The notes below the pieces were generated by a model that saw only the letters and a list, made by a program, of their open reading frames with translations, searched no databases and was not told the origin of the DNA. 64,000 bases of DNA, taken from Bacteroidaceae bacterium. GTDB lineage: Bacteria; Bacteroidota; Bacteroidia; Bacteroidales; Bacteroidaceae. The stretch's first letter is position 1. Each line of letters begins with the position of its first letter. Location: contig JAFTVE010000028.1 in assembly GCA_017465905.1 (NCBI GenBank), positions 1-64,000 of the forward strand, given 5' to 3'. Below, piece after piece: positions 4,107-40,138 of the stretch. A program made the translations under genes and the position numbers.

Positions 4107-5555
4107 TTAAGGTAACGGATAGTCTTTGATGATGCCGTCGAGGTAGTCGACACGGCGGACGAGCCAGTCGTGCATGGCATAAACCTCGTTCATGTAGGTC
4201 TTGCCACGGAGGGGCCAGCGGGTAAGGTCGCGAGTGATGGTGCCGCGATGTAGTTCGTCGAGATAGAGCTCCATCTCGGCCCAGTTGCGCGACACAATCT
4301 CTTTCTTCATGGCGCTCCACTCCTCCTTGAAGAGGGTGACAAAGCCGTGATTTCCGAAGAGGCGGGTGAAGAAGGGGGATATGCCACCATCGTAACAGCC
4401 GCGGTGACGATAGGGGTCGGTACCGAGCACCAACTCGCGGTGGTTGGAGAAGTAGTTATGCCCGGTAGTCATCGTGGCCCAGTCAAAGTCGTAGCCGGCA
4501 TCGAAGTCCCACAGAGGGCCCATCGTCCACTTGCTATCGGCATCCTTGTGGATGAAGACACTGCGCGGTGCCACCAGCTCGACATTAAGCACCAGCTCCT
4601 GCAGGATGAGGTAGCGCACGAAGGAGCGGAGGTCCATCAGTTTGTTGGTCTGCGAGAAGCTCTTGTTGTTGATGGCTGTCTCCAACTCGGCAAACACCTG
4701 CTTGATGGAGTCCTTCAAGGCATCGGTGAGGTCATCCTCATCGGGATGCTTGATACAGACAGGCAGGCGGAACACCTCGGAGTAGAAATTGTCAGTAGCA
4801 CCGGGTGAGAGACCAGGACCATCGTCGAGGTCAAGCGCAAGGAGTATACCTCGCTGCTCATCTATGGCTACACGCCCCTTGCCCTGCTCTACCTGCTCGG
4901 TAAGCTGATAGAGCCCGATGTACTCTCCATTGAGGAAGACCTCGGTATAGCGTGTGTGGTTGGTGCAAGGCATATCGAGCCAATGGCCAGCCTCGAAGAC
5001 AAAGGTATTCATCAGGTCGGTAACATCACGATAGTTGGCCAGCAATACCCAGTCCTTATTGGCTTCGAGTCCAAGGATAGGGGCTTTCTTATCGAGCTTG
5101 ATGCGGTAGGGCTTCTTGTCATACCATTCCCACGTGCTGTTGCCACGGCCACGAATCTTGGCCTTACCCGAATAGTGAGAATAGCTACCACGGCCATTGA
5201 CAGAGACATAGCATGTAACATACTCCTCCTTGGAGGTCACTGCCTCGCCACTATTGATGGTGATGTACATCTGAAACACCTTGTAGCGGTTCTCCGTGAA
5301 GGTGGTGGGGGCATGCTGAAACGTGATGGTATCGACCTCGCTACTGCGGAAGGGCACTACTACCCCACCCTGCACATTGGTTTGAAGGCGGCTTTGATCG
5401 GCATTGAAGTCAAAGTAGTTGACATCGTCCATTGCGAGCGGGAACTCCCAATAAGAGCCGTAGGAATGGATGCGGATATGGATGTTGTCCTGAGCCACAG
5501 CCGTAGATGCAAGAAGCACCATCAGAAAGAGTAAACGGAATATCTTGCAACTCAT
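4107..5555 (-). CDS. Exported CotH-kinase-family protein
   Basis: A 482-residue protein with a clear signal peptide (cleavage after STAVAQ, about residue 22). It has a short front strand ending VDTITF (residues 74-79), a motif shared with several neighbours, and a CotH-type kinase domain from about residue 95. Visible CotH hallmarks are KIRGRGNSTW (133-142), KKPYRIKLDKK, KDWVLLANYRD, the acidic block near 241-246 and WDFDAGYDFDW (349-359). CotH proteins are atypical kinases; in Bacillus one phosphorylates spore-coat proteins, and homologues are exported in many Bacteroidetes. The target here is unknown. It is translationally close (2 bases) to the small protein upstream and belongs to the FAS1/SusCD/peptidase block. 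Confidence 0.85.
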   Translation of the reverse strand: MSCKIFRLLFLMVLLASTAVAQDNIHIRIHSYGSYWEFPLAMDDVNYFDFNADQSRLQTNVQGGVVVPFRSSEVDTITFQHAPTTFTENRYKVFQMYITINSGEAVTSKEEYVTCYVSVNGRGSYSHYSGKAKIRGRGNSTWEWYDKKPYRIKLDKKAPILGLEANKDWVLLANYRDVTDLMNTFVFEAGHWLDMPCTNHTRYTEVFLNGEYIGLYQLTEQVEQGKGRVAIDEQRGILLALDLDDGPGLSPGATDNFYSEVFRLPVCIKHPDEDDLTDALKDSIKQVFAELETAINNKSFSQTNKLMDLRSFVRYLILQELVLNVELVAPRSVFIHKDADSKWTMGPLWDFDAGYDFDWATMTTGHNYFSNHRELVLGTDPYRHRGCYDGGISPFFTRLFGNHGFVTLFKEEWSAMKKEIVSRNWAEMELYLDELHRGTITRDLTRWPLRGKTYMNEVYAMHDWLVRRVDYLDGIIKDYPLP

Positions 5556-5557
5556 AC

Positions 5558-5998
5558 CTACTTCTTATATATGGTGAAAGACTGCTCGCCACACTGCACC
5601 ACATAGGTACCGGCAGGGAGCTGTGTGAGATCTACATGCTGAGCCTCATCAGATGCAGTGACAACTACTTGGCAAGGAACACCCGCTGTATTGAATACAC
5701 GCAGAGGCTCGAGCGAGGTGATGGTAAACTGATATCCATCGGCCGAGAACTGCGGAGCAGTCTCTACGGCCTCAATACCCGAAGCATCATCAATCACTGC
5801 AAACTGTACGATACGGCTAAACTCAATCTTACGGGTAGAGACACGCATCACTCCATTCTCGAAACGTATCATAGGGACGTACTTCTCGAACGAATAGTAA
5901 ATCTTAGAACCTCCCGAAAGCTCTATCATCAGGCACTTGGCCGGAAAAGCCGAAGCACACACGAGGAGAAGAAACGCAAGACACAAAGAACGACGCAT
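5558..5998 (-). CDS. Small exported protein with C-terminal sorting-type tail
   Basis: A 146-residue protein with a signal peptide (MRRSLCLAFLLLVCASAFPA). It has a short beta-rich middle with KIEFSRIVQFAV, and a C-terminal domain ending LPAGTYVVQCGEQSFTIYKK, the look of the beta-sandwich tail fused to many exported Bacteroidetes proteins (type IX-sorting-like). It has no enzymatic domain. It lies 2 bases before the CotH-like gene, and its layout matches the 9033-9431 gene, which also precedes exported enzymes. It may be a surface anchor or partner module; no function can be assigned from sequence. Confidence 0.7.
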   Translation of the reverse strand: MRRSLCLAFLLLVCASAFPAKCLMIELSGGSKIYYSFEKYVPMIRFENGVMRVSTRKIEFSRIVQFAVIDDASGIEAVETAPQFSADGYQFTITSLEPLRVFNTAGVPCQVVVTASDEAQHVDLTQLPAGTYVVQCGEQSFTIYKK

Positions 5999-6015
5999 AG
6001 ACTGGATGTTAATTC

Positions 6016-6113
6016 ACAAGTGACAATTGACAAGTGACAATTGACAAGTGACAATTCACAAGTGACAATTCACAATTAATAATTCACAATTAACGATTCA
6101 GAATTCAGAATTC
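6016..6113. repeat. 14-bp tandem array
   Basis: Seven consecutive 14-bp units: four of ACAAGTGACAATT(G/C), two of ACAATTAAnnATTC type and AGAATTCAGAATTC. It fills the gap between the DUF6055-like gene (stop at 6098-6100) and the next gene, and its last units form the 3' end of that coding sequence. Each unit carries a CAATTG or GAATTC-like palindromic core. Function unknown. Confidence 0.85.
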
Positions 6114-7363
6114 AACTCCGTTCCCTTGAACTTTACCTCGTAGGGATACTGGCGATTGGGTTCGCGATTGCGCCAGGTGAGCATTTTATGTTCCTGCGGA
6201 GCACCCATCACAACTAAATAGAGGTGTTCAACCTTCTGTCCGCGAGGCATCTTCATCGCTGCCTTGCCTGTGCTCACGGGGGTGCCATAGTGAGTCTCGC
6301 CATCGGCCGTAACTGCTACAAAAGCATAGCGGAGCGGGGTGTCGCTCTTGACGATGGCACTCACCTTCTTACCTTCCTTGGCTGGCTGCAAGCGGATGGC
6401 ACTGAAGCCATAGTCCTCGGGCAGCACCTCATCGGTCGGGCTGTAGTAGCCTTTCGTTGCAGCGGGCTTCATGGGTGTATCGAAGGTGCAGGCATAGCGG
6501 CGTGTCTCGTTCCAGGCATGTCCGAGGTCGAGGGTCACGATACGCTGGCAGGCATCAATCATCTCATCACAAAACTGCTCCTGTGAGAGACCATATAGGC
6601 GCTTATAGGTAATCACAGGATCCTCGCCACGCTTACCGGCACGGTAGAGGTCGGCAATGCAGGTCTTGCCCCGCTTCATGGCCCAATACTGGAGCACATA
6701 GGGCGAGCGGTAGATATTCTCACCATCAAGGTAGGCCTTGTGGATAGCCTTGCTATATGCCTCGAAGTGGTAGTTCTCATCGGTGAGCCAATCGGGGTTG
6801 ACAAGCCAGAGCATCCACTGACTGGTCATCTCATAAAATCCCGAGCCGCCCCATGCATCACCTACGCTATCGGCAGGTATCTGCAGCTGGAACGAATGGC
6901 CCAGCTCGTGTGCCATGCAGTTGAGTTTCTTATCCTGTATACGATTGGGAGCGACCCACAGAGCTCCAATGAAGTTGTCGTATGTACCACCGTATGCTGT
7001 ACCATCGAGCGAGTAATTGAGCATCACCATCATCTTGTACTTGTCGGCCTTGGAGCCAGGCAAGGTGAAGCGCAAGGTATCGCGATAGTAGGTATAGAAC
7101 GATTCGATGCGCTCCTTGAGGTTTTCCAAATCGACCTTCATGGGCTTGCCCTCAAGCATGGGCGGATTGCTGAGGTCGTGGCCGAAGCCCTTCTCCCAGA
7201 AGAATACCAGGTTCTCGGTCTGAGCCGATCGTTTCCAGCTCCAACGGCTGTTATCGTCATCAAGGTCGTAGCAACGGATTGAGTCAGGCAGGAACACCTG
7301 CTTCTGGGCAATAGCGGAGAAGCTCAGCCCAACGAATGTCAATAGCAATAGATATTTCTTCAT
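6098..7363 (-). CDS. Exported DUF6055-like putative zinc metallopeptidase (second copy)
   Basis: A 421-residue protein with a signal peptide (cleavage near SAIAQ, residue 20). The motif AHELGHSFQ (HELGH at 152-156) followed by GFYEMTSQW, with Glu at 178, gives an HExxH + Glu arrangement as in gluzincin peptidases. The family resembles DUF6055, for which I know no established activity. It is a paralogue of the gene immediately upstream (9-base gap): both share LVFFW/FVVFW, ALWV, the HE(L/I)GHSFQ block, an aromatic-Glu...QW motif and a similar C-terminal beta domain (YLVVMGAP versus LWVVVQGAP). Surface or periplasmic location is expected. Peptidase activity is inferred from motifs only. Confidence 0.75.
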   Translation of the reverse strand: MKKYLLLLTFVGLSFSAIAQKQVFLPDSIRCYDLDDDNSRWSWKRSAQTENLVFFWEKGFGHDLSNPPMLEGKPMKVDLENLKERIESFYTYYRDTLRFTLPGSKADKYKMMVMLNYSLDGTAYGGTYDNFIGALWVAPNRIQDKKLNCMAHELGHSFQLQIPADSVGDAWGGSGFYEMTSQWMLWLVNPDWLTDENYHFEAYSKAIHKAYLDGENIYRSPYVLQYWAMKRGKTCIADLYRAGKRGEDPVITYKRLYGLSQEQFCDEMIDACQRIVTLDLGHAWNETRRYACTFDTPMKPAATKGYYSPTDEVLPEDYGFSAIRLQPAKEGKKVSAIVKSDTPLRYAFVAVTADGETHYGTPVSTGKAAMKMPRGQKVEHLYLVVMGAPQEHKMLTWRNREPNRQYPYEVKFKGTELNSEF

Positions 7364-7372
7364 TATATTATC

Positions 7373-9016
7373 TTACTTGATTGAAGTTCCTTCCACTTTA
7401 ATCTGATAAGGCAACTGATGGTCGGTGGCCTCCTTCTCGTCCCATGGACACTGGAAATACTTGGTAGGAGCACCCTGAACGACTACCCACAGATAGCGCA
7501 AGTTCTCGGGCACGGTAAAGGTAGCCGTACCATCTGCCGAGGGAGTAGCCAGATTCATGTCGCCATAGACACGAGTATTGTCCCACTTGATACCGACAAA
7601 GCCATAGGCCAACTGCTCGTAACCAGCCACGGCCGTATTATTATAAGCGGTAACAGTACCCACCTTATTGCCATCGCCATCGACCTGCTTGCCGGCATCA
7701 CCCGTTGCAAGAGCCGAGCCTGCAGCCAAAGGCTTGATAGTAACCTTCACCTCAGTACCCACCTCGGGCAATGTCAGGGGAATGACGTTGAAGCCTGTGG
7801 GCTGCGGACAACTTGCATAGGCCACCTGCTTCCATCCTTCAGCAAGGTTAACGAAAGAAGTTTTGTAGTTGGAGTATTTGCCCATCACGTAGCTGCGTAT
7901 CTGGTCGAAGTCAAAGGTAGTAGCCTTCTGAGCATACTCGAAATACTGCTTCAAGAACTCATTATAATCATTTCCACAGAATATACGCATATAGGCTTGC
8001 GAAGCATCTTCGGGATAGTAGCTCTCATTCCAAATGCGGCCAAGAGCCGACAGACCGTTCTTCTCAGTCCAATAATATTGTAACCAGTAGCTGGCATAGC
8101 GCATCCACTCATGTTCGAAGTGGCGATGATAGTTTCGCATCCATACATCGAAGTGGTAGCTGTTGATAGCCTCGGACGGATAGTCCTGATGAGCCTGCCA
8201 CTGCGCACACTGTTCCCAGAAGCCGCAACCACCATTGCTATTGGGATATCCGTAGCGGAAGCCCGAGCGATTGTCATTGGCCTTACCACGATAGATGTTG
8301 TCGCAATAGGTCTGATATTGGAACGAGTGGCCAATCTCGTGAGCTATCGTAGAGCCTACGGGTTGGCAGGTACTGGGATTGACCCACAGGGCTCCCACGG
8401 TATTGTCATAGCCCGAGCCTGTAGCCAGCCACTCGGTCTGATACAAGAGATAAATCATCATCTTGTAGGTATCGAGCTGCGACTTGTTGTCACCGGTAAC
8501 AACCATGCCCAACTCCTCCACATTGGTGGTGTAGAACTTTTCGGCCTTGAGGAGCAGGTCATCGATATTGACACGCATATTCGCAGGAACGGTAGAGGCA
8601 TTGGGGTCGTCACCGAAGCGACTGTCCCAGAACACCACGAAATGCTCTGACTCCTTGCTGTGCTTGAACGACCACTTGGCATTGGGGGCGGCATAATCGT
8701 TGTTGTAGCTATTATCTGAAGTGCGAGGTTTCCACAAGATGCGGCCGGGGTCGCCGATGATGAGTGCAGCGCCATCAGTACCAGTCATACCCGACAGACG
8801 ATAGTCAGCATAACCATTATCAAAAGATGTGGAGTAGCGGCGTATCACAGGCATCGTGCCACGAGCACGAAACTCTATGGAGTCAAACTCCGAAATGTCC
8901 ATCACAAACTTATTGGCCTTGAAACGGTCATCGTAACGTACCCAAAGAGAGTCTTGAGCATACATGCCAAGTATGCCCGACAGACAGAACAGAGCAGTAA
9001 GTATCTTTGCTTTCAT
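7373..9016 (-). CDS. Exported DUF6055-like putative zinc metallopeptidase (first copy)
   Basis: About 547 residues from the ATG at 9016 (an in-frame ATG at 9022 is equally possible; the longer start at 9043 would overlap the gene before it). It has a signal peptide ending near GMYAQ. A front module contains EFDSIEF, like the VDTITF motif of the CotH-like protein. The catalytic-looking region has AHEIGHSFQ (HEIGH 226-230) and then GFWEQCAQW with Glu at 268, fitting an HExxH + Glu zinc site; the 37-residue spacer is longer than in its paralogue and is rich in Gly, Asn and Tyr. A beta-rich C-terminal domain follows (FTVPENLRYLWVVVQGAP). It is in tight tandem with its paralogue. Proteolytic function is inferred. 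Confidence 0.75.
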   Translation of the reverse strand: MKAKILTALFCLSGILGMYAQDSLWVRYDDRFKANKFVMDISEFDSIEFRARGTMPVIRRYSTSFDNGYADYRLSGMTGTDGAALIIGDPGRILWKPRTSDNSYNNDYAAPNAKWSFKHSKESEHFVVFWDSRFGDDPNASTVPANMRVNIDDLLLKAEKFYTTNVEELGMVVTGDNKSQLDTYKMMIYLLYQTEWLATGSGYDNTVGALWVNPSTCQPVGSTIAHEIGHSFQYQTYCDNIYRGKANDNRSGFRYGYPNSNGGCGFWEQCAQWQAHQDYPSEAINSYHFDVWMRNYHRHFEHEWMRYASYWLQYYWTEKNGLSALGRIWNESYYPEDASQAYMRIFCGNDYNEFLKQYFEYAQKATTFDFDQIRSYVMGKYSNYKTSFVNLAEGWKQVAYASCPQPTGFNVIPLTLPEVGTEVKVTIKPLAAGSALATGDAGKQVDGDGNKVGTVTAYNNTAVAGYEQLAYGFVGIKWDNTRVYGDMNLATPSADGTATFTVPENLRYLWVVVQGAPTKYFQCPWDEKEATDHQLPYQIKVEGTSIK

Positions 9017-9032
9017 AGTCATTCCGTGTTTA

Positions 9033-9431
9033 TTATTTGACAACCATCTTCTTGCCGTTCATGATATATAGTCCTTTGGGAAGTCCCTCAAGAGAAGCAG
9101 CATTCTTGCGCACAAGGCGACCATCCATACCATATATGTCGGCTACTTCAGGCACCTCAACGGGCTTCACCTCGTCAACCACCTCGGTATCTATAAAGAA
9201 ACGGATCTCACGCACTCGAGAAAGCAGCATGGAGCGTCCCCCAATGACCAGACGCTTATCATCCATATATGCCTTCGGACCCCAAAAGTCATCGGTATCA
9301 TAGAGCGACACCGTAACCTCCTGATTGTTGGTGCGCACGGCCGTCATCTTCAGCACTTTCACCTCCTCTTGCGCCCAAGCAGAGAAAGAGAATGCAGCCA
9401 AACAAACTACTAAAAACAATAATCTCTTCAT
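9033..9431 (-). CDS. Small exported protein with C-terminal sorting-type tail
   Basis: A 132-residue protein started at the ATG 9429-9431, where a typical signal peptide begins (MKRLLFLVVCLAAFSFSAWA); upstream in-frame codons are not signal-like. The mature part is a short beta-rich segment (VIGGRSMLLSRVREIRFFID), a VEVPEV linker and a classic tail, VADIYGMDGRLVRK then GLPKGLYIMNGKKMVVK. This tail marks many exported proteins of Prevotella and Bacteroides. It is the first gene after the double terminator and precedes the two DUF6055-like genes by about 10-16 bases. Same architecture as the 5558-5998 gene. Function unknown. Confidence 0.7.
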   Translation of the reverse strand: MKRLLFLVVCLAAFSFSAWAQEEVKVLKMTAVRTNNQEVTVSLYDTDDFWGPKAYMDDKRLVIGGRSMLLSRVREIRFFIDTEVVDEVKPVEVPEVADIYGMDGRLVRKNAASLEGLPKGLYIMNGKKMVVK

Positions 9432-9448
9432 ATTTTCAATAATTTTAT

Positions 9449-9545
9449 ACCTATGAAAAAAAATTATCACGCTTATGAAAAAAGTTTTTCAAGCCTGTGA
9501 AAAAAAATTATCACACCTATGATAAAACTTTATCACAGGTGTGAC
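9449..9545 (-). terminator. Tandem double terminator made of 22-bp units
   Basis: Four 22-bp units (9449-9470, 9471-9492, 9493-9514, 9515-9536) plus a partial fifth follow the SusD2 stop on the minus strand. In RNA they fold as two consecutive hairpins. The first is 9512-9543, with CACACCT/AGGTGTG outer and GATAAA/TTTATC inner arms; the second is 9468-9499. Each is followed by ATAATTTTTTTT. This fits intrinsic termination after susD2 with partial read-through to the downstream genes. Arms differ between the hairpins but stay complementary. Confidence 0.7.
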
Positions 9546-9551: not shown

Positions 9552-11345
9552 TTATTCTTTCATGCCAATCTCACCGTTCCACTGAAGATACCAATTGGCA
9601 GGGTTGTACAAATCTTTAGCAATAAAGGATTTCATCTCATCCACCTTGGCTGCTCCACGACGAGCATACACACGGTCGGCAAGGTAAGCAGGTTCGCCTC
9701 GACGCAATGCCACACGCATCAGATCATAGAAGCGGTGACCCTCGAAAGCAAACTCTAATGCCTCTTCATCGACAATCAGGTCTTCTACCTTCTCTATCTG
9801 ATAAGCCAAGCGTGCATCGGGTGTAAGCGTAGAGTCATCGGGGAACACATAGTACTCATTGTATTCTGTCCAGCCCGCGCCTTTGGAGTGAATACCCATT
9901 GTGTTCTCTGTGGCCATCTCAACAGCCGTGCGCAATACATACTGGTTGTTGGGGAAGTTGAACTGACTAACCCAAGCAGAGTCTGCTGCCGTAGTGCAAT
10001 AGGGAAGCACCTCAGAGGCTATAACGCTGTTGTTGACACCCTTGCTCAATATATGGAAAGCAAAACGAGGATAGCCTGCACGATTGAGTGCCTCGGCCAT
10101 ACGCAGATATACCATCGTACGACGATAGAGGTGTACGTTGCGTGAAGAATACTTAGAATTCATCACCAACTTCGTCACAGAACCATCAAGGCCAAAGATA
10201 TTATACCCACCATATGCCGCAGCGAGACGCAAGTCACCTCTTTCAAATCCCTCCAATGAGGCAGGCGGATAAACCACATTATTAGAGTTTGTTAGATGAC
10301 AATAAATTTGCGAAGCTGATAATTCGGTCAGACTTTTAGAGGGTATGATTGATACCTCATAGTTATTACTTGTAGTTGAGTTAAAATAATCGCTCAGACG
10401 ACTATATTGGCTCTCCGAAGGAATAGAGTCGCCAGGAAACATAGTGATAAGTTCCACATTTATACCATCATAAGCCTCTATCCCGAAAGACATTGTAGAC
10501 CAAGAATCCGATTTAGACATCCAACGCAAATCTTCACGAGACCAATTAACGGTAGTAATATCTAAAGGATACCCAACATACGAAGTATTGCGAGTATTCA
10601 AGTAATTGTAATAGCACAATGCAGCCTCCTTATAATTGCCAGCCCAAAGATTGAGGTCGCCCTGCAATACATACATGGGGAAGTAGAAGAGGCGAGAATC
10701 GGTGTTTCGGATTGTTCCATAGCCAGGAACTTCGATTGTCTCCAATCCTTGAAGGTCATTGATGAAATATTCGCAAATCTCTTCGATGCCGTACTTAGGA
10801 TAGTCGCGCTCGGCCTCCTCTTGCGTAAGGATAGGCTCAGTAACGAAGGGTACTTCACCATAGTTGAGGGCAAGCTGCAAGTAGGTCCACGCACGATAGG
10901 CCTTGATCACAGCGTACTCTTTGCGAAAGATATATTCATTACGGTTATTCTTCATGTCAATGTCTACATTGGCCAGGAAGTAGTTGCAGTTGTTGATGAC
11001 CGCATAGTAGTCGCGTGGAGCATTGTATGCATTGTTGTCGCTGACATTGAACATGGCAATCTCCAAGAGGTCCGAAGAGGTGACATCGGTCACATCTGCC
11101 AGGTCGCCACGCAGTTCGCCCAATAGGATGGTTCTGTCAGAAAGGCTCTGCAGTTTATACAACACACCTATCACAGAGTAGAGCGTATCGGAAGGAGAGT
11201 CCAACTTGTTGTCAGAGAAGTGCGAGGACTCCGTATCCAGAAAGTCCTGACACCCCGACATCGAGGGCACAATAATCAGTGCAGAGAGCAGCAAGGCGGC
11301 ATAGCGCTTGCAGCATCCGGCGAGTATATCGATTGTTCGTTTCAT
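9552..11345 (-). CDS. SusD/RagB-family surface lipoprotein (SusD2)
   Basis: A 597-residue SusD/RagB-type substrate-binding lipoprotein. The signal ends in lipobox SMSGC, followed by QDFLDTESS typical of SusD N-termini. The TPR-like helical core includes YAVIKAYRAWTYLQLALNYG with the expected GEVPFVTEP, and the C-terminal signature EALEFAFEGHRFYDLMR is present. SusD proteins cap the SusC barrel and deliver glycan or peptide ligands; ligand type cannot be read from sequence. It follows susC2 by 20 bases and ends at a double terminator, so susC2-susD2 looks like the end of the upper part of the block. Confidence 0.93.
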   Translation of the reverse strand: MKRTIDILAGCCKRYAALLLSALIIVPSMSGCQDFLDTESSHFSDNKLDSPSDTLYSVIGVLYKLQSLSDRTILLGELRGDLADVTDVTSSDLLEIAMFNVSDNNAYNAPRDYYAVINNCNYFLANVDIDMKNNRNEYIFRKEYAVIKAYRAWTYLQLALNYGEVPFVTEPILTQEEAERDYPKYGIEEICEYFINDLQGLETIEVPGYGTIRNTDSRLFYFPMYVLQGDLNLWAGNYKEAALCYYNYLNTRNTSYVGYPLDITTVNWSREDLRWMSKSDSWSTMSFGIEAYDGINVELITMFPGDSIPSESQYSRLSDYFNSTTSNNYEVSIIPSKSLTELSASQIYCHLTNSNNVVYPPASLEGFERGDLRLAAAYGGYNIFGLDGSVTKLVMNSKYSSRNVHLYRRTMVYLRMAEALNRAGYPRFAFHILSKGVNNSVIASEVLPYCTTAADSAWVSQFNFPNNQYVLRTAVEMATENTMGIHSKGAGWTEYNEYYVFPDDSTLTPDARLAYQIEKVEDLIVDEEALEFAFEGHRFYDLMRVALRRGEPAYLADRVYARRGAAKVDEMKSFIAKDLYNPANWYLQWNGEIGMKE

Positions 11346-14300: not shown

Positions 14301-14605
14301 TTCATATTGGGAGCCGAGATATACAGCTGACTTACACTGAGGGGAATATTCAGTGTATAGGTTCCGTCAGGTTCTGTGAATGTACTGTAACCATCCAGTG
14401 CAGCAGCGCTAACCAGCACACCAGACATAGGCTGACGGGTAGCTCCATTAAAGACTACACCTTTTACAACGCGAGTCGGCACTTGCTTTCCAGCCTTCAA
14501 TACTGCAATATCTGCCGATTGCTGTCCGTTGCTTGCATCTTGTGCCAAAGCGGGAGTCGACATCAGCAAGCAAGCAGACAAACTATATATTATATAATTC
14601 TTCAT
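11366..14605 (-). CDS. SusC/RagA-family TonB-dependent receptor (SusC2)
   Basis: About 1079 residues from the ATG at 14605, where the signal peptide starts (MKNYIIYSLSACLLMSTPALA). A carboxypeptidase-regulatory-like domain (VVKGVVFNGATRQPMSGVLV onward) comes first, then the plug with the SusC signature IEKVTVLRNGTSLYGAKGAN, then a long barrel ending SIVAGIKINL. It forms the energised outer-membrane channel for whatever SusD2 binds. The plug is atypical in carrying a long segment (YIERNNMLGIQAVRDFDYSD, SIEEEIQKQAGA) between the two domains. The gene lies between two FAS1 lipoprotein genes and susD2 with short gaps, consistent with one operon. Confidence 0.93.
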   Translation of the reverse strand: MKNYIIYSLSACLLMSTPALAQDASNGQQSADIAVLKAGKQVPTRVVKGVVFNGATRQPMSGVLVSAAALDGYSTFTEPDGTYTLNIPLSVSQLYISAPNMNGILVGVVEGEQVKNSYLYPETFADEYIERNNMLGIQAVRDFDYSDAVSIEEEIQKQAGAAVHTISRSGTAGIGSVMFMNGLNSLNVNAQPLIVIDGVIVDQQYNRQMLHQGFYNNILSNINPNDIEKVTVLRNGTSLYGAKGANGVILIDTRRNKTMATRITASVSSGITLEPKFIDMMDATQYKSYASDLLSTTNTTIKDFKFLNENPSYYYYPQYHNNTDWKQYVYRTGISQNYNINVSGGDDVANYNLSLGYVDKQSTLVGNDMDRINIRFNTDIEFTDKFDARFDISFAKLSRNLRNDGATLDYSEGTSTAPGFLAYVKSPMLSPYTYSDGVLSNSFIDVNDESYLDEALSKYNNYNYKLANPIAVNDYGNAQNKNFYENSMLNISVTPKYQFNDHLALSEHFSYNLVNTSENYYIPMNGVPSYFVASVSAYRDNETRALASHQGSMFSDTRLDWSNCYGAHDWHVFGGARVQMESYSLNTQVGYNTGNDKTPFMSSSLLNANNGGSDDKWNSWAWYAQGEYNYLQRYYLQLNATAETSSRFGADAINSIKAFGAPWTMFYGAQGAWVVSNESWMAGVEPIDYLRISAGYDVSGNDDIDYYAARSYFRAFKFMNSISGIAFDNIGNSELQAEITRRFNVGLETNLLKNRLSLRLNGFISNTDNLLTFQSLGFLSGLEYNWSNGGALSNRGFDASVMGKLIATKNFQWEVGASVGHYKNKITRLADNKTVMDTQLYGATIRTEVGQAANLFYGYETEGVFATSEQAAESGLYILAENGVDKKPFGAGDVIFKDNHEDGAIDAKDMVVIGDPNPDIYGNLFSAMSYKRFRLDVNFNYSLGNDVYNYMRSQLEGGNRFMNQTTAMLHRWQAEGQQTSMPRATFQDPMGNARFSDRWIEDGSYLRLKSATLSYNLPINSTFIQGFQFWVQANNVFTLSKYLGSDPEFAATSNVIGQGIDLGQLSQSRSIVAGIKINL

Positions 14606-14634
14606 ATCGTGTGAATTAAAATGCAACGTTACTC

Positions 14635-16305: not shown

Positions 16306-16336
16306 AATCATTCTGTTTCTATAGTTCCTCATTCGA

Positions 16337-18358: not shown

Positions 18359-18384
18359 AGTATTTCGTTTATATCATTGATTAC

Positions 18385-20112: not shown

Positions 20113-20113
20113 T

Positions 20114-23446: not shown

Positions 23447-23460
23447 CTTCGTCTGCTACT

Positions 23461-28346: not shown

Positions 28347-28407
28347 ATAGATTGTTTTTCATTCCATTAGTTTTAGCAGTCTTAGACACGTAATATCTAA
28401 AACTTGA

Positions 28408-28415
28408 CAAAGTAA
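28408..28415 (-). promoter_or_regulatory. Candidate promoter of the 24-kb minus-strand block
   Basis: On the minus strand this reads TTACTTTG, one mismatch from TAnnTTTG, with a TTG about 20 bases upstream. It would give a leader of about 55 bases before the ATG at 28346. No exact TAnnTTTG lies nearer. It is outside the MITE-like element. Confidence 0.35.
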
Positions 28416-28477
28416 CTGAAATAATCTTAATAAAGCAAAAGAAAACCATAAAAAAAACACACCACATTAATCGAGAA

Positions 28478-28933: not shown

Positions 28934-29052
28934 AATTGGGTTTCTGGGACGAAATCCAGATTGACGGGGCGAAAATCTCTTCATGTTCCAAGAATTAGAT
29001 TGGTCTATAACATTTTTTTACTGCTTTTTGAACAACATAACGATTTTTTCAT

Positions 29053-29060
29053 TAGCTTTG
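29053..29060 (+). promoter_or_regulatory. Promoter -7 box for the DUF4859 gene
   Basis: TAGCTTTG fits TAnnTTTG exactly, 43 bases before the ATG at 29103. A TTTG about 22 bases upstream may serve as the -33 element. Confidence 0.55.
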
Positions 29061-29102
29061 TCGGGAGAATAACAATTTGTATCACTTTAATAACTTTATT
29101 AC

Positions 29103-34482: not shown

Positions 34483-37400
34483 ATGAAGAAACTACTCGCC
34501 GCCGCGCTACTACTCCTCACAGCCGCAGGAGCCCAAGCACAAGCCCTCCCTGCCGAATGGAACACTCCGGGAGCAGGCAACCCCCTACTACCCGGCTACT
34601 TTGCCGACCCCACCATAAAGAAGTTTGGTGACACCTATTATATATATGCCACTACCGATGGTACGGGCAATGGCTATGGCCCTGCCCAAGTGTGGATGTC
34701 GAAGGATTTTGTCAACTGGCGCAACGTCACCATGAACTGGCCCACGACAGAAGTGGTATGGGCACCCGACGTGGTGCAGCAGCCCGACGGCAGCTACCGC
34801 TACTACTACTGCACGCCGTGTGTGATTTATGTAGGCGAAAGTGATAGTCCTACAGGTCCGTGGACAAACCGCCTCGGAGCACCGGATGCCATCCTCGTGC
34901 AAGACCGCTTCGTACACAATGCCATCACCCTCGACCCACAGCTGTTTGTCGATGATGATGGCTCCGAGTATCTCTACTTCGGCACTTGGGGTATCTACGA
35001 GAACTTTGGCTGCGGTGTAGCCAAGCTTGCTCCCGACGGCAAATCGTTTACCGACAAGAAGCTCATCCTCAACACCGAGATTAAGGATTTCTTCGAGGCA
35101 CCCTTTGTGTTCAAGAAAGACGGCATCTACTATTTCACCTATTCGTCCGGCTCATGCCACGACCACACCTACCGCGTGCAGTATGCCATCAGCAAGGAGG
35201 GACCGATGGGGCCCTATGAGTACAAAGGTTGCATCTTGGAGACCAATGCCGATGGCACCATCCATGGCCCCGGCCACCACTCCGTACTCATCGACGGTGA
35301 CGATTACTACATCGTGTATCACCGTCACAACAATCCCCATTCCATCCATGGATTCCACCGTCAGATATGTATCGACAAGATGGAGTTCGATGCAGAGGGA
35401 AATATCCAGAAAATTATCCCCACACATGAGGGACTCATCCCTGAATCGTTCCAGAAGCAGGCCAAAAAGAACTATATAGAAAACTTGGCTTATGGTGCCA
35501 AGGTGACTGCTTCATCCTATTACGATGAGTGGTTCAAGCCCGAGTATGCAACCGACGACAACAACGCCACCCTATGGCGTGCCCGCCAATGCCATGGCGA
35601 GGAGTGGATTACGATTGACCTCGGCAAGGAGCAGAAGTTCAACCAGGTATGGACACAGTTTGAATACACCACCTTCTTCTACCAATACAAGATAGAGACC
35701 TCTGTCGACGGCATCAACTGGACACTCTATGCCGACAAGACACAAAACACACAGCAGGGCTCTCCCATGATAGATGAGGGAGAATGCAAAGCACGATACA
35801 TCCGCATCACGGTGACAGACACACAGAAGAACGGACACTTCCCTGCTATCTGGAACGTGAAGGTGTACAATGCCACCAAGCGTAAGAATCCGAAGAATCT
35901 GTTGCCCGAAGTAGCCATTGACGAAGAAGCGCTCTTGGCTGGCTATCCTTGGATTCATGAAAAGGACATCGAACCTGCCGAGCACCTGAAAACAGCCGAG
36001 AAGGGCAATAAGATTATAGACATCAATGCCGATGACTACGCTATGGGAAAGGCCTTGAGCCTCAAGGAAATCAAGAACCGCCCGGGCGGCACCTTCAGTG
36101 GCGACAAGAACATTGTGGTAGAGATTAAGAAAGGCAAATATGCCTTCTACTTCAATGGCCAGCAGTCACTCAAGAGCAGCTTCAGTCTCCCCAAGACGAT
36201 GACCTACAATGCGCCCTACACCATCACAGCATGGACACTCAACCCACAAGTAGGCAACATCGAGACGGTGGCCGAATTTACCGAGCGCCGCAACGACCTC
36301 GCCACGATTGAGTTCCGCCAAGGCCGCGACCGCAGCAATGGCCTCGTAGCACATAACGCTTCGTTCGAGAACTCGGGAGCACCGAGAGAATGCCTCAGCG
36401 GTGAGGGTGAATGGCAACATTGGGTAGTCACTTTTGACGGTTACTATGAGCGTGTATACCTTAACGGACAGAAGATCATCGAGAAGAACATGTTCCTCAT
36501 GATTCGCCCCGAAGGACGCATCACACTGGGAGCATCTATGGATGGGGGCAACAAGTTTAGCGGCTACCTGCACTCACTGCAGTTCTTTGATAAGAGCTTC
36601 ACGGAAGCCGATGTACAAGCAGCCTATGCTGCTCCATCAAGCACGAATGATAAGATTACATTCGACGGAGCACTCGACCTGCAAGTGCGCAGCCTCTCCC
36701 CTAACCTACTCAGCGTAAGCGTAGTGGATGGCAATGGAGAGCGCATGGAGTCGGGCCTGCTCAACTACCGATATGCTGTGACTGGCGTTGATAGTCCTAA
36801 ACGTGCCGGAAAGTCCAATACTACCCTAACCCTCCCCAGCACCACCATTCCCGCAGGCAATCAGTCATCGTTCATCCTCGCTACCGACGGGAAAGCCACA
36901 CAGAAGTGCCTCGTTCAGGTGACCGACGACAGCGGACAGTTCTCCCGCATACTGACTGCCGATGTCACCATCGCAGCCGACCAGTTCGTCCACTTCGGCG
37001 ACAAAGCAGACAAGCCTGCCGACTACATTGCCAACAAGGAGGGATGGGACGGTGTACTGGCCAATGGCGACCCACAATATGCCATGAGTGCACAAACCGT
37101 AGACGGTGCTATCAAGCTCACCTCAGCGAACGCCAACCTCAACACACGCAAAGAGGACAACGGCATTATATTATATAAGGAGTTGGAGGGCGACTTCCTC
37201 GTGCAGACCAAAGTGGTTGCACTCGACGGACAAGCCGAACACCGCACACCAGCCTACAACGAAGGTGGACTCATCGTATTGGACGACTCAGGCAACCGTG
37301 GCCAGGAAATTATCCACATCGGCGTATTCCCCAACTACAACTGCGGCAACATGCTCACCCATGTTCGTGGCTATAGCCGTCCACAATATCCGCGTGGCAA

Positions 37401-37650
37401 TGGATGGAACTACGATCCCTACCTGCAAATCGAGCGCACAGGCGACATCTTCACCATACGCACAAGTCAGGATGGCAAGAGCTGGACCGATATGCCAGGC
37501 TCACCCATCAACGCGCCACAGCTCAATGGCAAGAAGCTGAAGGTAGGCCTCTACCAGACGACATATACCGACAACAAGTCATGGGTATCGTTCGACGAAT
37601 TTGACTTATGGGAAAACAACAATAACCAAAACACCAATAATAACAAGTAA
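34483..37650 (+). CDS. Multidomain GH43 glycosidase (arabinofuranosidase-type)
   Basis: A 1055-residue exported protein. After a signal peptide (to AQAQ) comes a five-bladed GH43 propeller with the three expected acids: Asp42 in GYFADPTIKKF, Asp151 in ITLDPQLFVDDDG and Glu205 in FFEAPFVFKKDG. Next are an F5/8 type C (CBM32-like) domain (about 330-465, VTASSYYDEWFKPEYATDDN, WITIDLGKEQKFNQVWTQFE), a LamG-like sandwich (about 530-710, WQHWVVTFDGYYERVYLNGQ) and a C-terminal concanavalin-like domain (about 845-1045, GDFLVQTKVVALDGQAEHRT), as in many GH43 enzymes. GH43 acts mainly on alpha-L-arabinofuranosyl or beta-xylosyl linkages; the exact substrate is unknown. GH127 follows one base after its stop. 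Confidence 0.9.
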   Translation: MKKLLAAALLLLTAAGAQAQALPAEWNTPGAGNPLLPGYFADPTIKKFGDTYYIYATTDGTGNGYGPAQVWMSKDFVNWRNVTMNWPTTEVVWAPDVVQQPDGSYRYYYCTPCVIYVGESDSPTGPWTNRLGAPDAILVQDRFVHNAITLDPQLFVDDDGSEYLYFGTWGIYENFGCGVAKLAPDGKSFTDKKLILNTEIKDFFEAPFVFKKDGIYYFTYSSGSCHDHTYRVQYAISKEGPMGPYEYKGCILETNADGTIHGPGHHSVLIDGDDYYIVYHRHNNPHSIHGFHRQICIDKMEFDAEGNIQKIIPTHEGLIPESFQKQAKKNYIENLAYGAKVTASSYYDEWFKPEYATDDNNATLWRARQCHGEEWITIDLGKEQKFNQVWTQFEYTTFFYQYKIETSVDGINWTLYADKTQNTQQGSPMIDEGECKARYIRITVTDTQKNGHFPAIWNVKVYNATKRKNPKNLLPEVAIDEEALLAGYPWIHEKDIEPAEHLKTAEKGNKIIDINADDYAMGKALSLKEIKNRPGGTFSGDKNIVVEIKKGKYAFYFNGQQSLKSSFSLPKTMTYNAPYTITAWTLNPQVGNIETVAEFTERRNDLATIEFRQGRDRSNGLVAHNASFENSGAPRECLSGEGEWQHWVVTFDGYYERVYLNGQKIIEKNMFLMIRPEGRITLGASMDGGNKFSGYLHSLQFFDKSFTEADVQAAYAAPSSTNDKITFDGALDLQVRSLSPNLLSVSVVDGNGERMESGLLNYRYAVTGVDSPKRAGKSNTTLTLPSTTIPAGNQSSFILATDGKATQKCLVQVTDDSGQFSRILTADVTIAADQFVHFGDKADKPADYIANKEGWDGVLANGDPQYAMSAQTVDGAIKLTSANANLNTRKEDNGIILYKELEGDFLVQTKVVALDGQAEHRTPAYNEGGLIVLDDSGNRGQEIIHIGVFPNYNCGNMLTHVRGYSRPQYPRGNGWNYDPYLQIERTGDIFTIRTSQDGKSWTDMPGSPINAPQLNGKKLKVGLYQTTYTDNKSWVSFDEFDLWENNNNQNTNNNK

Positions 37651-37651
37651 C

Positions 37652-40138
37652 ATGAAAAAAGCAATTCTGACCGCACTTGCAGCAGCCATCATCCTGCCCA
37701 TCAGTGCACATCCCGGTCACAAGCACGACCACACCTCGGGTGGTTACCCCATCACCCCGGTTCCCTTTACCTCTGTAAAGGTTGAGAGCAACAGCTTCTG
37801 GGGCCAACGCCTCGAAGCAAGCCGTGTAGTCACCATTCCTCTTGCCTTCAGCAAATGTGAGAGCGAGGGACGCTACACCAACTTCTCCAATGCCGCCGAG
37901 CACATGAAGGATCCCTCTAAAGTGTTCAAGGTAAATGGCGTAGGATACTCTTTCGACGACACTGACCCCTACAAGACCATTGAAGGTGCCAGCTACATCC
38001 TGCAGACCTACCCCGACAAGAAGTTGAAGCAGTACATTGACAGCGTATTGAATGTAATCGCATCGGCTCAGGAGCCCGACGGATACCTCTATACTGCTCG
38101 TACACAGAACCCTGGAGACCCTCATCACTGGGCTGGCGACACCCGCTGGAGCAAGGTGGAGGACCTCAGCCACGAGTTCTACAACCTCGGCCACATGGTT
38201 GAGGGTGCCGTAGCACACTATCAGGCTACAGGCTCACGCAAGTTCCTCGACATCGCTATCCGCTATGCCGACTGCGTCATCCGCGAAGTAGGTGACAAGC
38301 CCGGACAAGCATGCGTAGTACCCGGCCACCAGATTGCCGAGATGGCTCTCTGCCGTCTTTACCTCGTGACTGGCGACCGCAAGTACCTTGACCAAGCCAA
38401 ATTCTTCCTCGACTATCGCGGCAAGACCACCATCAAGACTGAGTATTCACAGAGCCACAAGCCCGTAGTAGAGCAAGACGAGGCCGTAGGTCACGCCGTA
38501 CGTGCCACCTATATGTATGCCGGCATGGCCGATGTAGCTGCCCTCACAGGCGACTCTGCCTACATCAATGCTATCGACGCTATCTGGGACAACATCGTGA
38601 ACAAGAAACTCTACATCACTGGCGGTATCGGCGCTACAGCATCAGGCGAGGCCTTTGGTCCCAACTACTACCTCCCCAACATGAGTGCCTATTGCGAGAC
38701 ATGTGCAGCCATCGGTAATGTATATGTAAACCATCGTCTGTTCCTCCTTCATGGCGAGTCTAAGTACTACGATGTACTGGAGCGTTCACTCTACAACGGT
38801 CTCATCAGCGGTGTGAGCCTCGATGGTGGTAAATTCTTCTACCCCAACCCCTTGGAGTCAATGGGTCAGCATCAGCGCCAGGCATGGTTCGGTTGCGCAT
38901 GCTGCCCCTCAAACATCAGCCGTTTCGTGCCCTCACTGCCCGGTTATGTATATGCAGTAAAAGACCGTGCGGTATACGTAAACCTCTTCCTCAGCAACAC
39001 CTCAAACCTCACGGTAGCAGGCAAGAAGGTGGCTCTCACACAGAGCACCGGCTATCCCTACTGTGGCGACATCAACATCAAGGTTGACCGCAACAGCTGC
39101 GGACAGTTTGACCTCAAGATCCGTATCCCCGGCTGGCTCAAGAGCCGTCCGCTCCCCGGCGAGCTCTACAGCTACAGCGACAACAAGCGCCTCGGCTATA
39201 GCATCAAGGTTAATGGTGTAGAGGCCGAAGGTACCGTGACAGAGGACGGCTACTTCACCATTCCCCGCAAGTGGAAGAACGGTGATGAAGTGACCATCCA
39301 CTTCGACATGGAGCCCCGCACCGTACGTGCCAGTGAGAAGGTAGAGGCCGACCGCGGTATGGTAAGCATCGAGCGTGGTCCTATCGTATACTGCGCCGAG
39401 TGGCCCGACAACAAGTTCGATATCAAGAGCGTGCTCATAAACCAGAACCCCGAGTTCACCCTCGAGCAGCGCAGCCTCGATGCCTTCATCCCCGAAGCAA
39501 GCAAGGCTAAGCTCAACACCTACAAGACACAGAACATCACTACCCTCACCACCGATGCCCAGACCCTCGCCTTCGACAAGCAGGGTAAGCTCACCACCGA
39601 GGAGGTGAAGCTCACGCTCATCCCCTACTACGCATGGTGTCATCGTGGCAATGGCGACATGAAGGTATGGATTCCTCAGGACCTCAAGGCCACCAACCCC
39701 GCAGCTCCCGCTACCTTGGCCTCACTGAGTAAGATTCACTCATCCATGCGCATCCCCGCCCTGCAGAGCATCGCCGACCGCCTCGTGCCGAAGGATGGCA
39801 ACGACCGTTCCATGCCTTACACCCACTGGTGGCCCAAGAACAACTCTACAGAGTGGATCTCTTACACCTTCCCCGAGGAGGCTACCGTACAGAGCTCTAC
39901 CGTATACTGGTTTGACGACCAGCCTTGGGGCGGATGCCGTATCCCCGACAGTTGGAAGATCTATTACAAGGATGCCAATGGCAACTGGCAACCTGTAGAG
40001 AACCCCGACGGCTATCCCGTAGCTAAAGGTGAGCCTTGCACCGTTAACTTCAAGCCGGTGAAGACCACAGCCCTCAAGCTCGAGGTTACCATGAACAAGC
40101 GCCTCTCAGCAGGTGTGTTCGAGTGGATTGTGAAGTAA
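37652..40138 (+). CDS. GH127 beta-L-arabinofuranosidase
   Basis: 828 residues from the ATG at 37652, where the signal peptide starts (MKKAILTALAAAIILPISAH); in-frame codons from 37601 would overlap GH43 by 50 bases without reason. The zinc/catalytic set of GH127 is present: Glu349 and Cys351 in YCETC, and Cys417-Cys418 in CACCPSN, matching the Glu-Cys-Cys-Cys site in which a thiol is the nucleophile. An (alpha/alpha)6 barrel with DEAVGHAVRATYMYAG is seen, followed by beta domains and a C-terminal F5/8-like unit (STEWISYTFPEEATVQSSTV). Known members release L-arabinose from beta-1,2-linked arabinofuranosides of hydroxyproline-rich glycoproteins or RG-II side chains. Last gene of the operon. 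Confidence 0.93.
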   Translation: MKKAILTALAAAIILPISAHPGHKHDHTSGGYPITPVPFTSVKVESNSFWGQRLEASRVVTIPLAFSKCESEGRYTNFSNAAEHMKDPSKVFKVNGVGYSFDDTDPYKTIEGASYILQTYPDKKLKQYIDSVLNVIASAQEPDGYLYTARTQNPGDPHHWAGDTRWSKVEDLSHEFYNLGHMVEGAVAHYQATGSRKFLDIAIRYADCVIREVGDKPGQACVVPGHQIAEMALCRLYLVTGDRKYLDQAKFFLDYRGKTTIKTEYSQSHKPVVEQDEAVGHAVRATYMYAGMADVAALTGDSAYINAIDAIWDNIVNKKLYITGGIGATASGEAFGPNYYLPNMSAYCETCAAIGNVYVNHRLFLLHGESKYYDVLERSLYNGLISGVSLDGGKFFYPNPLESMGQHQRQAWFGCACCPSNISRFVPSLPGYVYAVKDRAVYVNLFLSNTSNLTVAGKKVALTQSTGYPYCGDINIKVDRNSCGQFDLKIRIPGWLKSRPLPGELYSYSDNKRLGYSIKVNGVEAEGTVTEDGYFTIPRKWKNGDEVTIHFDMEPRTVRASEKVEADRGMVSIERGPIVYCAEWPDNKFDIKSVLINQNPEFTLEQRSLDAFIPEASKAKLNTYKTQNITTLTTDAQTLAFDKQGKLTTEEVKLTLIPYYAWCHRGNGDMKVWIPQDLKATNPAAPATLASLSKIHSSMRIPALQSIADRLVPKDGNDRSMPYTHWWPKNNSTEWISYTFPEEATVQSSTVYWFDDQPWGGCRIPDSWKIYYKDANGNWQPVENPDGYPVAKGEPCTVNFKPVKTTALKLEVTMNKRLSAGVFEWIVK

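What the first reader, a model, noticed from the sequence alone, without database searches (positions are those of the whole stretch)
4107..40138. Two divergent operons together match the chemistry of plant extensin
Seen: beside the peptidase-rich block lies an operon with GH97 (retaining alpha-galactosidase type by its KVDFLD motif), GH43 and GH127. Known: extensins carry serine-linked alpha-galactose and hydroxyproline-linked arabinosides with beta-1,2-linked L-Araf (GH127 substrate) capped by alpha-linked L-Araf (a plausible GH43 substrate). Inference: glycosidases strip the sugars, the HExxH proteins cut the backbone and the SusCD pairs import the products. I know of no described locus with exactly this combination, but cannot search.
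Basis: inference. Interest (0 to 1): 0.75.

Follow-up and report, generated by a model that had tools for sequence, protein, structure and literature searches.

The report
Bacterial kit for digesting plant extensin
A bacterium, probably from the gut of plant-eating animals, carries two back-to-back gene clusters that look like one kit for stripping the sugars off, and cutting up, the hydroxyproline-rich glycoproteins (such as extensin) that reinforce plant cell walls, and relatives carry much the same set of enzymes in many arrangements, sometimes fused into single proteins.

Summary
Observation confirmed: two divergent operons, 28346→4107 and 29103→40138. One has two SusCD pairs, three FAS1 proteins, three HExxH proteins (two DUF6055/M106, one divergent relative) and CotH; the other DUF4859, DUF5020, GH97, GH43, GH127. 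The extensin reading comes out stronger. (1) GH97 matches retaining alpha-galactosidases, not SusB-type glucosidases; GH127 keeps the beta-L-Araf site. (2) Relatives merge both operons, e.g. Phocaeicola plebeius: GH127'-SusC-SusD-DUF4859-M106-M106-aminopeptidase P-EamA-GH97/HExxH-GH43-GH127-DPPIV. (3) Single proteins fuse M106 to GH43 (11 of 80 loci) and GH97 to an HExxH domain (4 of 80). (4) X-Pro exopeptidases sit in several of these operons. (5) In a distant family 8 of 10 M106 loci carry at least one of DPPIV, GH43, alpha-galactosidase or GH127 kin. Against: a GH2 beta-galactosidase-type gene flanks the GH127 of all 7 compact genus loci read, GH127's nearest solved kin is tied to arabinogalactan, and nothing was assayed. 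Other Hyp-arabinosylated proteins cannot be told from extensin. Six literature searches aimed at this found HRGP enzymes in Bifidobacterium, Xanthomonas and (by annotation) Latescibacteria, but no Bacteroidota locus of this kind.

The parts
4107..5555 (-). CotH family protein, last gene of the peptidase/SusCD operon
   Evidence: PF08757 1.4e-40; CotH kin in 31 of 80 M106b loci
5558..5998 (-). small secreted protein, weak T9SS sorting tail
   Evidence: Por_Secre_tail E 0.009, below cut-off
6098..7363 (-). M106b: DUF6055 (MEROPS M106) metallopeptidase-like, HELGH; conserved Glu178 is the candidate third zinc ligand (inference)
   Evidence: PF19527 5.3e-121; H152, E153, H156, E178 invariant in 49 rows
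7373..9043 (-). M106a: DUF6055 metallopeptidase-like, HEIGH
   Evidence: PF19527 4.8e-130; HEIGH at residue 235
9033..9470 (-). small secreted protein
   Evidence: ORF only, no Pfam family
9552..11345 (-). SusD-like lipoprotein 2
   Evidence: PF07980 2.6e-8, PF14322 3e-7
11366..14626 (-). SusC-like transporter 2
   Evidence: Plug PF07715 1.3e-10
14635..16332 (-). FAS1-like protein c
   Evidence: PF02469 4.2e-4, just below cut-off
16337..18358 (-). FAS1 protein b
   Evidence: PF02469 2.1e-17
18385..20124 (-). SusD-like lipoprotein 1
   Evidence: PF07980 3.2e-22
20114..23446 (-). SusC-like transporter 1
   Evidence: Plug PF07715 4.1e-16
23461..26022 (-). FAS1 protein a
   Evidence: PF02469 1.9e-16
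26037..28346 (-). HEGIH protein: probable divergent M106 kin with a weak T9SS-type tail; first gene of the '-' operon
   Evidence: hhalign of its C-terminal domain to M106, prob 88, E 3.1e-6; a homologue (L032) hits PF19527 at 0.002, its own Por_Secre_tail match 0.0057, both below cut-off
28347..29102 (.). divergent intergenic region between the two operons
   Evidence: gap between ORFs
29103..31550 (+). DUF4859 repeat protein; candidate surface binder (inference)
   Evidence: PF16151 1.6e-29, 3 stretches; DUF4859 also follows DUF6055 in one frame at G000:C29
31694..32386 (+). DUF5020 protein
   Evidence: PF16412 1.6e-65
32423..34402 (+). GH97 retaining alpha-galactosidase type
   Evidence: 3a24 1.6e-183, nucleophile aligned
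34483..37650 (+). GH43 with F5/8, LamG and DUF1349; probable alpha-L-arabinofuranosidase
   Evidence: 5msx 4e-46, 3qz4 2.3e-34
37652..40138 (+). GH127 beta-L-arabinofuranosidase type with C-terminal F5/8 domain (ORF listed from TTG 37601)
   Evidence: 6ex6 1014 bits, active-site motifs kept against 3wkw

Best explanation
The two operons are one utilisation system for hydroxyproline-rich plant O-glycoproteins of the extensin type. Surface SusD, FAS1, DUF4859 and F5/8 modules bind the glycoprotein; the secreted HExxH proteins (two M106 and the HEGIH relative) cut its backbone into glycopeptides; two SusCD pairs import them. In the periplasm GH43 removes the terminal alpha-1,3-L-Araf of Hyp-Ara4, GH127 removes the beta-linked L-Araf residues, and GH97 removes alpha-Gal from Ser. 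Proline-specific exopeptidases (a DPPIV orthologue encoded elsewhere in this genome; DPPIV and aminopeptidase P inside the operon in some relatives) finish the bare Pro/Hyp-rich peptides. Shown here: gene content, active-site residues, conservation, fusions, co-occurrence. Inferred: substrate, localisation, order of steps, peptidase activity, binding roles.
For: Glycosidase types. Compact locus in five genus genomes, [GH127-GH97] divergent from [SusC-SusD-...M106...] with DUF4859 (G001, G003, G013, G015, G016). One-operon version in P. plebeius and B. mediterraneensis; contiguous locus in B. cellulosilyticus. Fusions M106-GH43 (11 of 80) and GH97-HExxH (4 of 80) (one M106-GH43 frame checked with Pfam). 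36 of 80 M106b loci hold at least one of these GHs in the held stretch. Full-length GH127 and DUF6055 in 161 genomes: DUF6055 in 53 of 64 with it, 13 of 97 without. X-Pro exopeptidases: DPPIV-family gene next to GH127, aminopeptidase P in 4 of 80. DPPIV orthologue in 14 of 19 genus genomes, 13 of which also have GH127 and an operon-type M106. Distant family: 8 of 10 M106 loci carry at least one of DPPIV, GH43, alpha-galactosidase or GH127 kin. Chemistry (Ser-Hyp3-5, beta-Araf chain, alpha-1,3-Araf, Gal on Ser): PMC7933510 passages. Precedent of a prolyl oligopeptidase-like gene beside xehypAA: PMC6085000 passages.
Against: No assay or expression data. A GH2 beta-galactosidase-type gene lies by the GH127 in all 7 genus loci of the compact kind that I read (G001, G003, G008, G013, G015, G016, G017; Pfam-checked in two), with GH59 in two and GH92 in two: extensin needs no beta-galactosidase. 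No regulator in the window's two operons (relatives have HTCS). GH127 is 67.6% identical over 652 aa to 6ex6 (recalled as BT3674), a type tied to arabinogalactan. BT1871, the GH97 yardstick (3a24, by recall), serves raffinose-type sugars. GH43 is absent between GH97 and GH127 in the compact genus loci. The window's DPPIV is unlinked. G006 has two GH127 genes but neither DPPIV nor an operon-type M106 was found. Of 53 genomes with both genes only 17 have them on one contig within about 40 kb (hand count, whose DUF6055 list was cut). 44 of 80 M106b loci show none of the GHs, some cut by contig ends. M106 activity rests on the motif and one paper's family label.
Confidence: 0.74

Rival explanations
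1. The system targets arabinogalactan proteins (type II arabinogalactan), as the BT3674-87 locus of B. thetaiotaomicron does, with peptidases for the protein core.
For: GH127 close to 6ex6 (67.6% over 652 aa); GH43 nearest the type recalled as BT3675/BT3662; BT3674-87 is listed with arabinogalactan (PMC3243724 passages) and BT3674 acted with exo-galactanases on larch AG (PMC10850190 passages). A GH2 beta-galactosidase-type gene by the GH127 of all 7 compact genus loci read.
Against: No galactanase, rhamnosidase or glucuronidase family in the Pfam-scanned genes of 4107-40138 or among the assigned genes of the P. plebeius and B. cellulosilyticus loci (a few flanking genes there unassigned). No GH2 of that kind in the 80 M106b loci or the 10 other-genus family loci (cut-off 300 bits). 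6ex6 falls with 6 short GH127s (fork 90) and all 31 rows labelled M106-linked in another fork (83, not starred) that also holds 5 short ones. 14 short-type loci read had no M106.
Confidence: 0.14
2. Two neighbouring but unrelated systems: a peptide or glycoprotein importer, and an arabinan/pectin or alpha-galactoside locus.
For: Separate divergent operons; 35 of 53 genomes with both genes have no listed pair on one contig (hand count; fragmented assemblies); a GH88 gene lies nearby at 51451-52623.
Against: Single-operon versions and protein fusions join the two halves; co-occurrence 53 of 64 against 13 of 97; recurrence in another family.
Confidence: 0.06
3. The target is a Hyp-arabinosylated plant protein other than extensin proper (solanaceous lectin, LRX, proline-rich protein, arabinosylated peptide).
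For: The same Hyp-O-arabinosides occur on solanaceous lectins (PMC6085000 passages); linkages of the inner three Araf also on CLE-type peptides (PMC7933510 passages).
Against: Ser-linked Gal is given for extensins in the passages read, and an alpha-galactosidase belongs to the kit; abundance in plant-fed guts favours wall extensins (inference).
Confidence: 0.06

Closest known systems
Bifidobacterium longum HypAA (GH43) / HypBA2 (GH121) / HypBA1 (GH127) system (PMC7263609, PMC6085000; passages)
   Same: alpha-L-Araf then beta-L-Araf removal from Hyp-Ara3/4 of extensin; GH127 active-site motifs conserved
   Different: ABC import of beta-Ara2; GH121 not found among the Pfam-scanned proteins here; the passages read mention no alpha-galactosidase there; here SusCD, M106, GH97 and (in relatives) DPPIV and aminopeptidase P
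Xanthomonas euvesicatoria XeHypAA/BA2/BA1 (PMC6085000; passages)
   Same: HRGP arabinoside enzymes with a prolyl oligopeptidase-like gene beside them
   Different: that paper calls the peptidase gene frameshifted; no M106, SusCD or alpha-galactosidase in the passages read; it says homologues of hypBA2 and hypAA are not in Bacteroides
B. thetaiotaomicron BT3674-87 arabinogalactan PUL (PMC3243724, PMC10850190; passages)
   Same: GH127 and (PMC8939339) GH43_34 types; Sus-like locus
   Different: targets galactan-backed AG; its GH127 structure (6ex6, by recall) groups with short GH127s; no M106 seen in the 14 short-GH127 loci read here
BT1871 GH97 alpha-galactosidase, PUL24 (PMC11501099; passages)
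   Same: alpha-galactosidase of the retaining GH97 type (3a24/5e1q identity recalled)
   Different: there tied to raffinose-type sugars; here in a peptidase/arabinofuranosidase locus, in some relatives fused to an HExxH domain
Latescibacteria single-cell genomes annotated for HRGP use (PMC4454575; passages)
   Same: GH127 and peptidases proposed, from annotation, to act on extensin glycan and protein
   Different: no locus, no M106, GH97 or fusion named in the passages read; most peptidases there called non-specific

Membership tests
GH97 retaining alpha-galactosidase | Asp nucleophile in the KVDF motif and overall kinship to 3a24 | tested here: met
   614.7 bits; Asp aligned to the residue that is Gly in 5e1q
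GH127 beta-L-arabinofuranosidase | Cys3-Glu zinc site and His/Tyr/His/Arg substrate site | tested here: met
   read by eye off the alignment to 3wkw, motifs located; substrate-site residues named in PMC10850190, HypBA1 zinc-site numbers and Glu338 recalled
GH43_34 alpha-1,3-L-arabinofuranosidase | subfamily assignment and linkage specificity | tested here: inconclusive
   nearest solved 5msx and 3qz4, locus names recalled; specificity not testable
M106 (DUF6055) | PF19527 match and HExxH with a conserved downstream Glu | tested here: met
   two proteins, invariant H152, E153, H156, E178; HEGIH protein only distantly
M106 (DUF6055) | proteolytic activity | not testable with these tools
   no assay
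Polysaccharide utilisation locus | SusC/SusD pairs with glycoside hydrolases | tested here: met
Polysaccharide utilisation locus | linked sensor/regulator | tested here: not met
   none in the window's two operons; HTCS or propeller-AraC linked in relatives
Arabinogalactan-protein PUL | galactan backbone and capping enzymes | tested here: not met
   none among the scanned genes of 4107-40138; but a GH2 beta-galactosidase-type gene flanks 7 of 7 compact genus loci
B. longum HypBA-type pathway | GH121 beta-L-arabinobiosidase | tested here: not met
   no GH121 among the Pfam-scanned proteins of 4107-40138; rest of the genome not searched for it

The most novel reading that the evidence does not exclude
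The M106 proteins, and the HExxH domain fused to GH97, are O-glycopeptidases that recognise or are coupled to arabinosylated-Hyp / galactosylated-Ser extensin repeats: the M106-GH43 and GH97-HExxH fusions would be enzymes that shave the glycan and cut the backbone at the same site, a plant-glycoprotein counterpart of mucinases.
Probability: 0.35. Interest if true: 0.88.

Novelty: new variant of a known kind. Interest (0 to 1): 0.74.

Why it matters
Extensins and related hydroxyproline-rich glycoproteins are a structural network of plant cell walls, yet my searches found no described locus by which Bacteroidota of rumen and gut take them apart. This gives a concrete, testable set of genes, present in named strains (P. 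plebeius DSM 17135, B. cellulosilyticus DSM 14838, B. mediterraneensis), proposes a substrate for the little-studied M106/DUF6055 proteins, and offers fused glycosidase-peptidase enzymes that could serve to analyse plant glycoproteins and to study forage digestion.

Tried and rejected
Rejected: GH97 as alpha-glucosidase. GH43 as xylan enzyme: depositors' names say 'endo-1,4-beta-xylanase', but the closest chains are, by recall, characterised arabinofuranosidases. Arabinogalactan as target: kept as a rival.

Led nowhere: structure prediction of M106 and the HEGIH protein (switched off). PDB sequence searches with the HEGIH and HEIGH proteins: no hit at E 1. PDB profile search with the GH97 C-terminal HExxH domain: no hit at E 0.1; its only named kin are Pfam matches below cut-off to PF07737 and, in one protein, PF06167, so I claim only 'HExxH domain'. 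M24 peptidases in the window genome: two matches, neither on the window's contig, a family found in all 14 control genomes, so uninformative. Papers PMC6217937 and PMC4110251 are not held. The last literature search returned nothing.

Known weak points: gene labels in relatives come from BLAST against window and relative proteins with thresholds I chose, checked with Pfam for a part only. The Fisher test ignores phylogeny, and its genome lists were typed by hand; two genomes (G101, G114) were counted as full-length from fragments; the 24 'short-only' genomes (2 with DUF6055) include one of the GH127' type (G120). In the tree the GH127 of G006 carries the label 'M106linked' although no M106 was seen near it, and 5 of 14 short rows fall in the same fork as the M106-linked ones. 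The M106a counts are inflated by cross-hits between the two M106 types and are not used. The five genus genomes without DPPIV are among the less complete (62-78%). 17 of 53 is a lower bound, as the DUF6055 match list was cut.


Full report
WHAT IS THERE. The window is part of contig C10 of a 2.84-Mb, 79.7% complete genome. The closest named records of its M106b protein are Bacteroidales/Bacteroidaceae MAGs, among them cattle and water-buffalo rectum and water-deer colon (rows L058-L062), so a herbivore-gut origin is an inference. Two operons diverge from a 756-bp gap. Leftward: HEGIH protein, FAS1a, SusC1, SusD1, FAS1b, FAS1c, SusC2, SusD2, a small protein, DUF6055 with HEIGH, DUF6055 with HELGH, a small protein, CotH. 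Rightward: DUF4859, DUF5020, GH97, GH43, GH127. DUF6055 is called peptidase family M106 in the one paper my search found that names it (PMC11241649, passage). The HEGIH protein has no Pfam family at cut-off, but its C-terminal domain aligns with M106 (hhalign prob 88, E 3.1e-6) and a homologue hits PF19527 at 0.002, so all three HExxH proteins are probably one broad kinship.

GLYCOSIDASE SPECIFICITY. GH97: 614.7 bits to alpha-galactosidase 3a24 and 611.8 to 5e1q, whose Gly in place of the nucleophile lines up with the window's KVDFLD Asp; glucosidase-named GH97s reach at most 138.9 bits. GH127: 1014 bits to 6ex6; against 3wkw it keeps the substrate-site His, Tyr, His and Arg that PMC10850190 names for HypBA1 and the Glu/Cys zinc-site motifs, whose HypBA1 numbers I recall. 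GH43: nearest 5msx and 3qz4; from recall these are BT_3662 and BT_3675, which PMC8939339 describes as GH43_34 alpha-1,3-arabinofuranosidases (passages).

CONSERVATION OF THE PAIRING. In the genus (19 genomes) 15 have a GH127 match and 15 a DUF6055 match. Five (G001, G003, G013, G015, G016) show a compact locus on one contig: GH127-GH97 divergent from SusC-SusD, DUF4859 and M106, plus HEGIH in G001, G003 and G013, with SusC proteins only about 25% identical to the window's (Pfam checks 29, 30). GH43 is absent between GH97 and GH127 there. A GH2 beta-galactosidase-type gene lies by the GH127 in these five and in G008 and G017. In the family (161 genomes) 66 have DUF6055 and 105 a GH127 match. 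Full-length GH127 (with the F5/8 tail) and DUF6055: 53 both, 11 GH127 only, 13 DUF6055 only, 84 neither (p 5e-19 without correction for kinship). By hand count 17 of the 53 have both on one contig within about 40 kb. Ten loci of other genera were read: each has M106 and GH127, with GH97 in five (G049, G146, G151, G158, G160) and GH43 in six (G035, G049, G061, G146, G151, G152) (these ten were picked because both lay on one contig). Fourteen short-type GH127 loci had no M106; their labelled neighbours were GH51, GH43 of 30-36% identity, GH2 and, in two, a GH97 of 25% identity. Of six full-length loci in genomes without M106, two (G053, G074) had GH127-GH127'-DPPIV. In a quick tree 6ex6 falls with 6 short GH127s; the 31 rows labelled M106-linked lie in another fork with support 83 (not starred) that also holds 5 short ones.

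ONE LOCUS, AND FUSIONS. A scan of genome contigs with the M106b profile found 316 relatives; the best 80 were kept. Among these 80, 36 hold at least one of GH97, GH43, GH127 or its paralogues in the held stretch (up to 10 kb each side, often cut by contig ends), 44 SusC or SusD, 38 HTCS, 31 CotH, 9 DPPIV, 4 aminopeptidase P. In Phocaeicola plebeius DSM 17135 the order is GH127'-SusC-SusD-DUF4859-M106-M106-aminopeptidase P-EamA-GH97/HExxH-GH43-GH127-DPPIV. In Bacteroides cellulosilyticus DSM 14838: HTCS-EamA-M106-SusD (unlabelled by BLAST, SusD by position)-SusC-GH127' divergent from GH97 (967 aa, with the HEFAH motif)-GH43-GH127-DPPIV-propeller regulator. Single open frames join M106 and GH43 in 11 of 80 loci and GH97 and an HExxH domain in 4 of 80, the latter also in G049, G146 and G151. 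Pfam confirms one M106-GH43 fusion of 1321 aa.

PROLINE. A DPPIV-family peptidase (best solved kin 2d5l) follows GH127 in G049, G146 and G151, P. plebeius and B. cellulosilyticus and G053, G074, and stands downstream of M106 loci in rumen-type Prevotella, mostly of the FAS1/SusCD kind (9 of 80; Pfam check of one). Its orthologue (59% or more) is in 14 of 19 genus genomes, among them the window's, where it is unlinked. Thirteen of the 14 also have GH127 and an operon-type M106; G007 has GH127 but only a stand-alone-type DUF6055. Of the five without DPPIV, four have neither GH127 nor DUF6055; G006 has two GH127 genes, with no module genes found round them, and one stand-alone-type DUF6055. These five are among the less complete. 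Aminopeptidase P and DPPIV act on Xaa-Pro ends (established knowledge), which fits a Pro/Hyp-rich substrate.

AN INDEPENDENT LINEAGE. In 345 genomes of the class 5 matched the M106b profile at 1e-80, two in the window's family and three in another, f45. In 151 f45 genomes 10 matched at 1e-95. Their 10 neighbourhoods: DPPIV in 6, GH43 (58-63% to the window's catalytic domain) in 6, alpha-galactosidase in 4 (GH97 of 38-40% in 3; Melibiase_2, GH27 by recall, in G454, with no GH97 in the 35 kb held), GH127 kin in 5; G603 and G649 have none of these. Of the two further f45 genomes read, G405 has GH127 kin beside M106 and G518 nothing of the kind that I recognised except distant matches. A non-homologous alpha-galactosidase in the G454 locus suggests that the activity, not the family, is selected.

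READING. Extensin carries Ser-Hyp3-5 repeats, Hyp-beta-Araf-beta-Araf-beta-Araf with a terminal alpha-1,3-Araf, and Gal on Ser (PMC7933510, passages); that the Ser-Gal bond is alpha is recalled. The kit has an enzyme type for each bond plus candidate endopeptidases and X-Pro exopeptidases, and no galactan backbone enzyme was found in the window's operons. The GH2 neighbours in the genus speak the other way. My confidence is 0.74 for a hydroxyproline-rich glycoprotein of extensin type. Shown: content, residues, conservation, fusions. Inferred: substrate, localisation, order. Not shown: any activity.

NOVELTY. Known kin are the HypAA/BA1/BA2 enzymes of B. longum and X. euvesicatoria; PMC6085000 says homologues of hypBA2 and hypAA are not in Bacteroides and mentions a prolyl oligopeptidase-like gene next to xehypAA (passages). 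PMC4454575 proposed from annotation that Latescibacteria use GH127 and peptidases on extensins (passages). Six of my 10 library searches were aimed at such loci (the others, 15, 16, 66 and 77, at single genes or papers); their listings showed no Bacteroidota extensin or HRGP locus. Subscription papers and preprints are mostly not held, so this is absence in that library only. I file it as a new variant of a known kind: a SusCD locus for a plant O-glycoprotein with integrated, partly fused peptidases.

Noticed in passing
L039 (G000:C29:48558-50333): A second kind of M106 protein in the same genome carries DUF6055 and then DUF4859 in one frame, tying DUF4859 (head of the '+' operon) to M106 proteins.
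   Followed up: partly
L020 2-3241, L024 2013-5264 and five further genus loci: GH2 beta-galactosidase-type genes lie by the GH127 of all seven compact genus loci read, but not in the window's operons; they may widen the substrate range or belong to a neighbouring locus.
   Followed up: partly
L028 11379-17936 (G016): A 2185-aa protein with HELIH and weak MG2/Ig-like matches sits between GH97 and SusC in one genus relative.
   Followed up: partly
L174 12495-13409 and L171 6551-7462 (G542, G531): The HExxH domain that is fused to GH97 in Bacteroides appears as a free-standing gene of about 300 aa (39-40% identity) beside SusCD in a distant family, followed by DPPIV and GH97 in G542.
   Followed up: partly
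14635-26022: Three FAS1 or FAS1-like proteins are interleaved with the two SusCD pairs; DUF4859 proteins stand near that place in the compact loci, so the two may play the same binding role.
   Followed up: no
51451-52623: GH88 family protein (3.4e-113), about 11 kb from the GH operon.
   Followed up: no
56132-59002: Protein with a BspA-type leucine-rich repeat region and seven MBG domain stretches.
   Followed up: no
PUL24 of B. thetaiotaomicron (PMC11501099, passages): BT1871's own locus is only weakly induced by raffinose-type sugars, so its true substrate may be open; a Ser-Gal glycopeptide would be worth testing.
   Followed up: no
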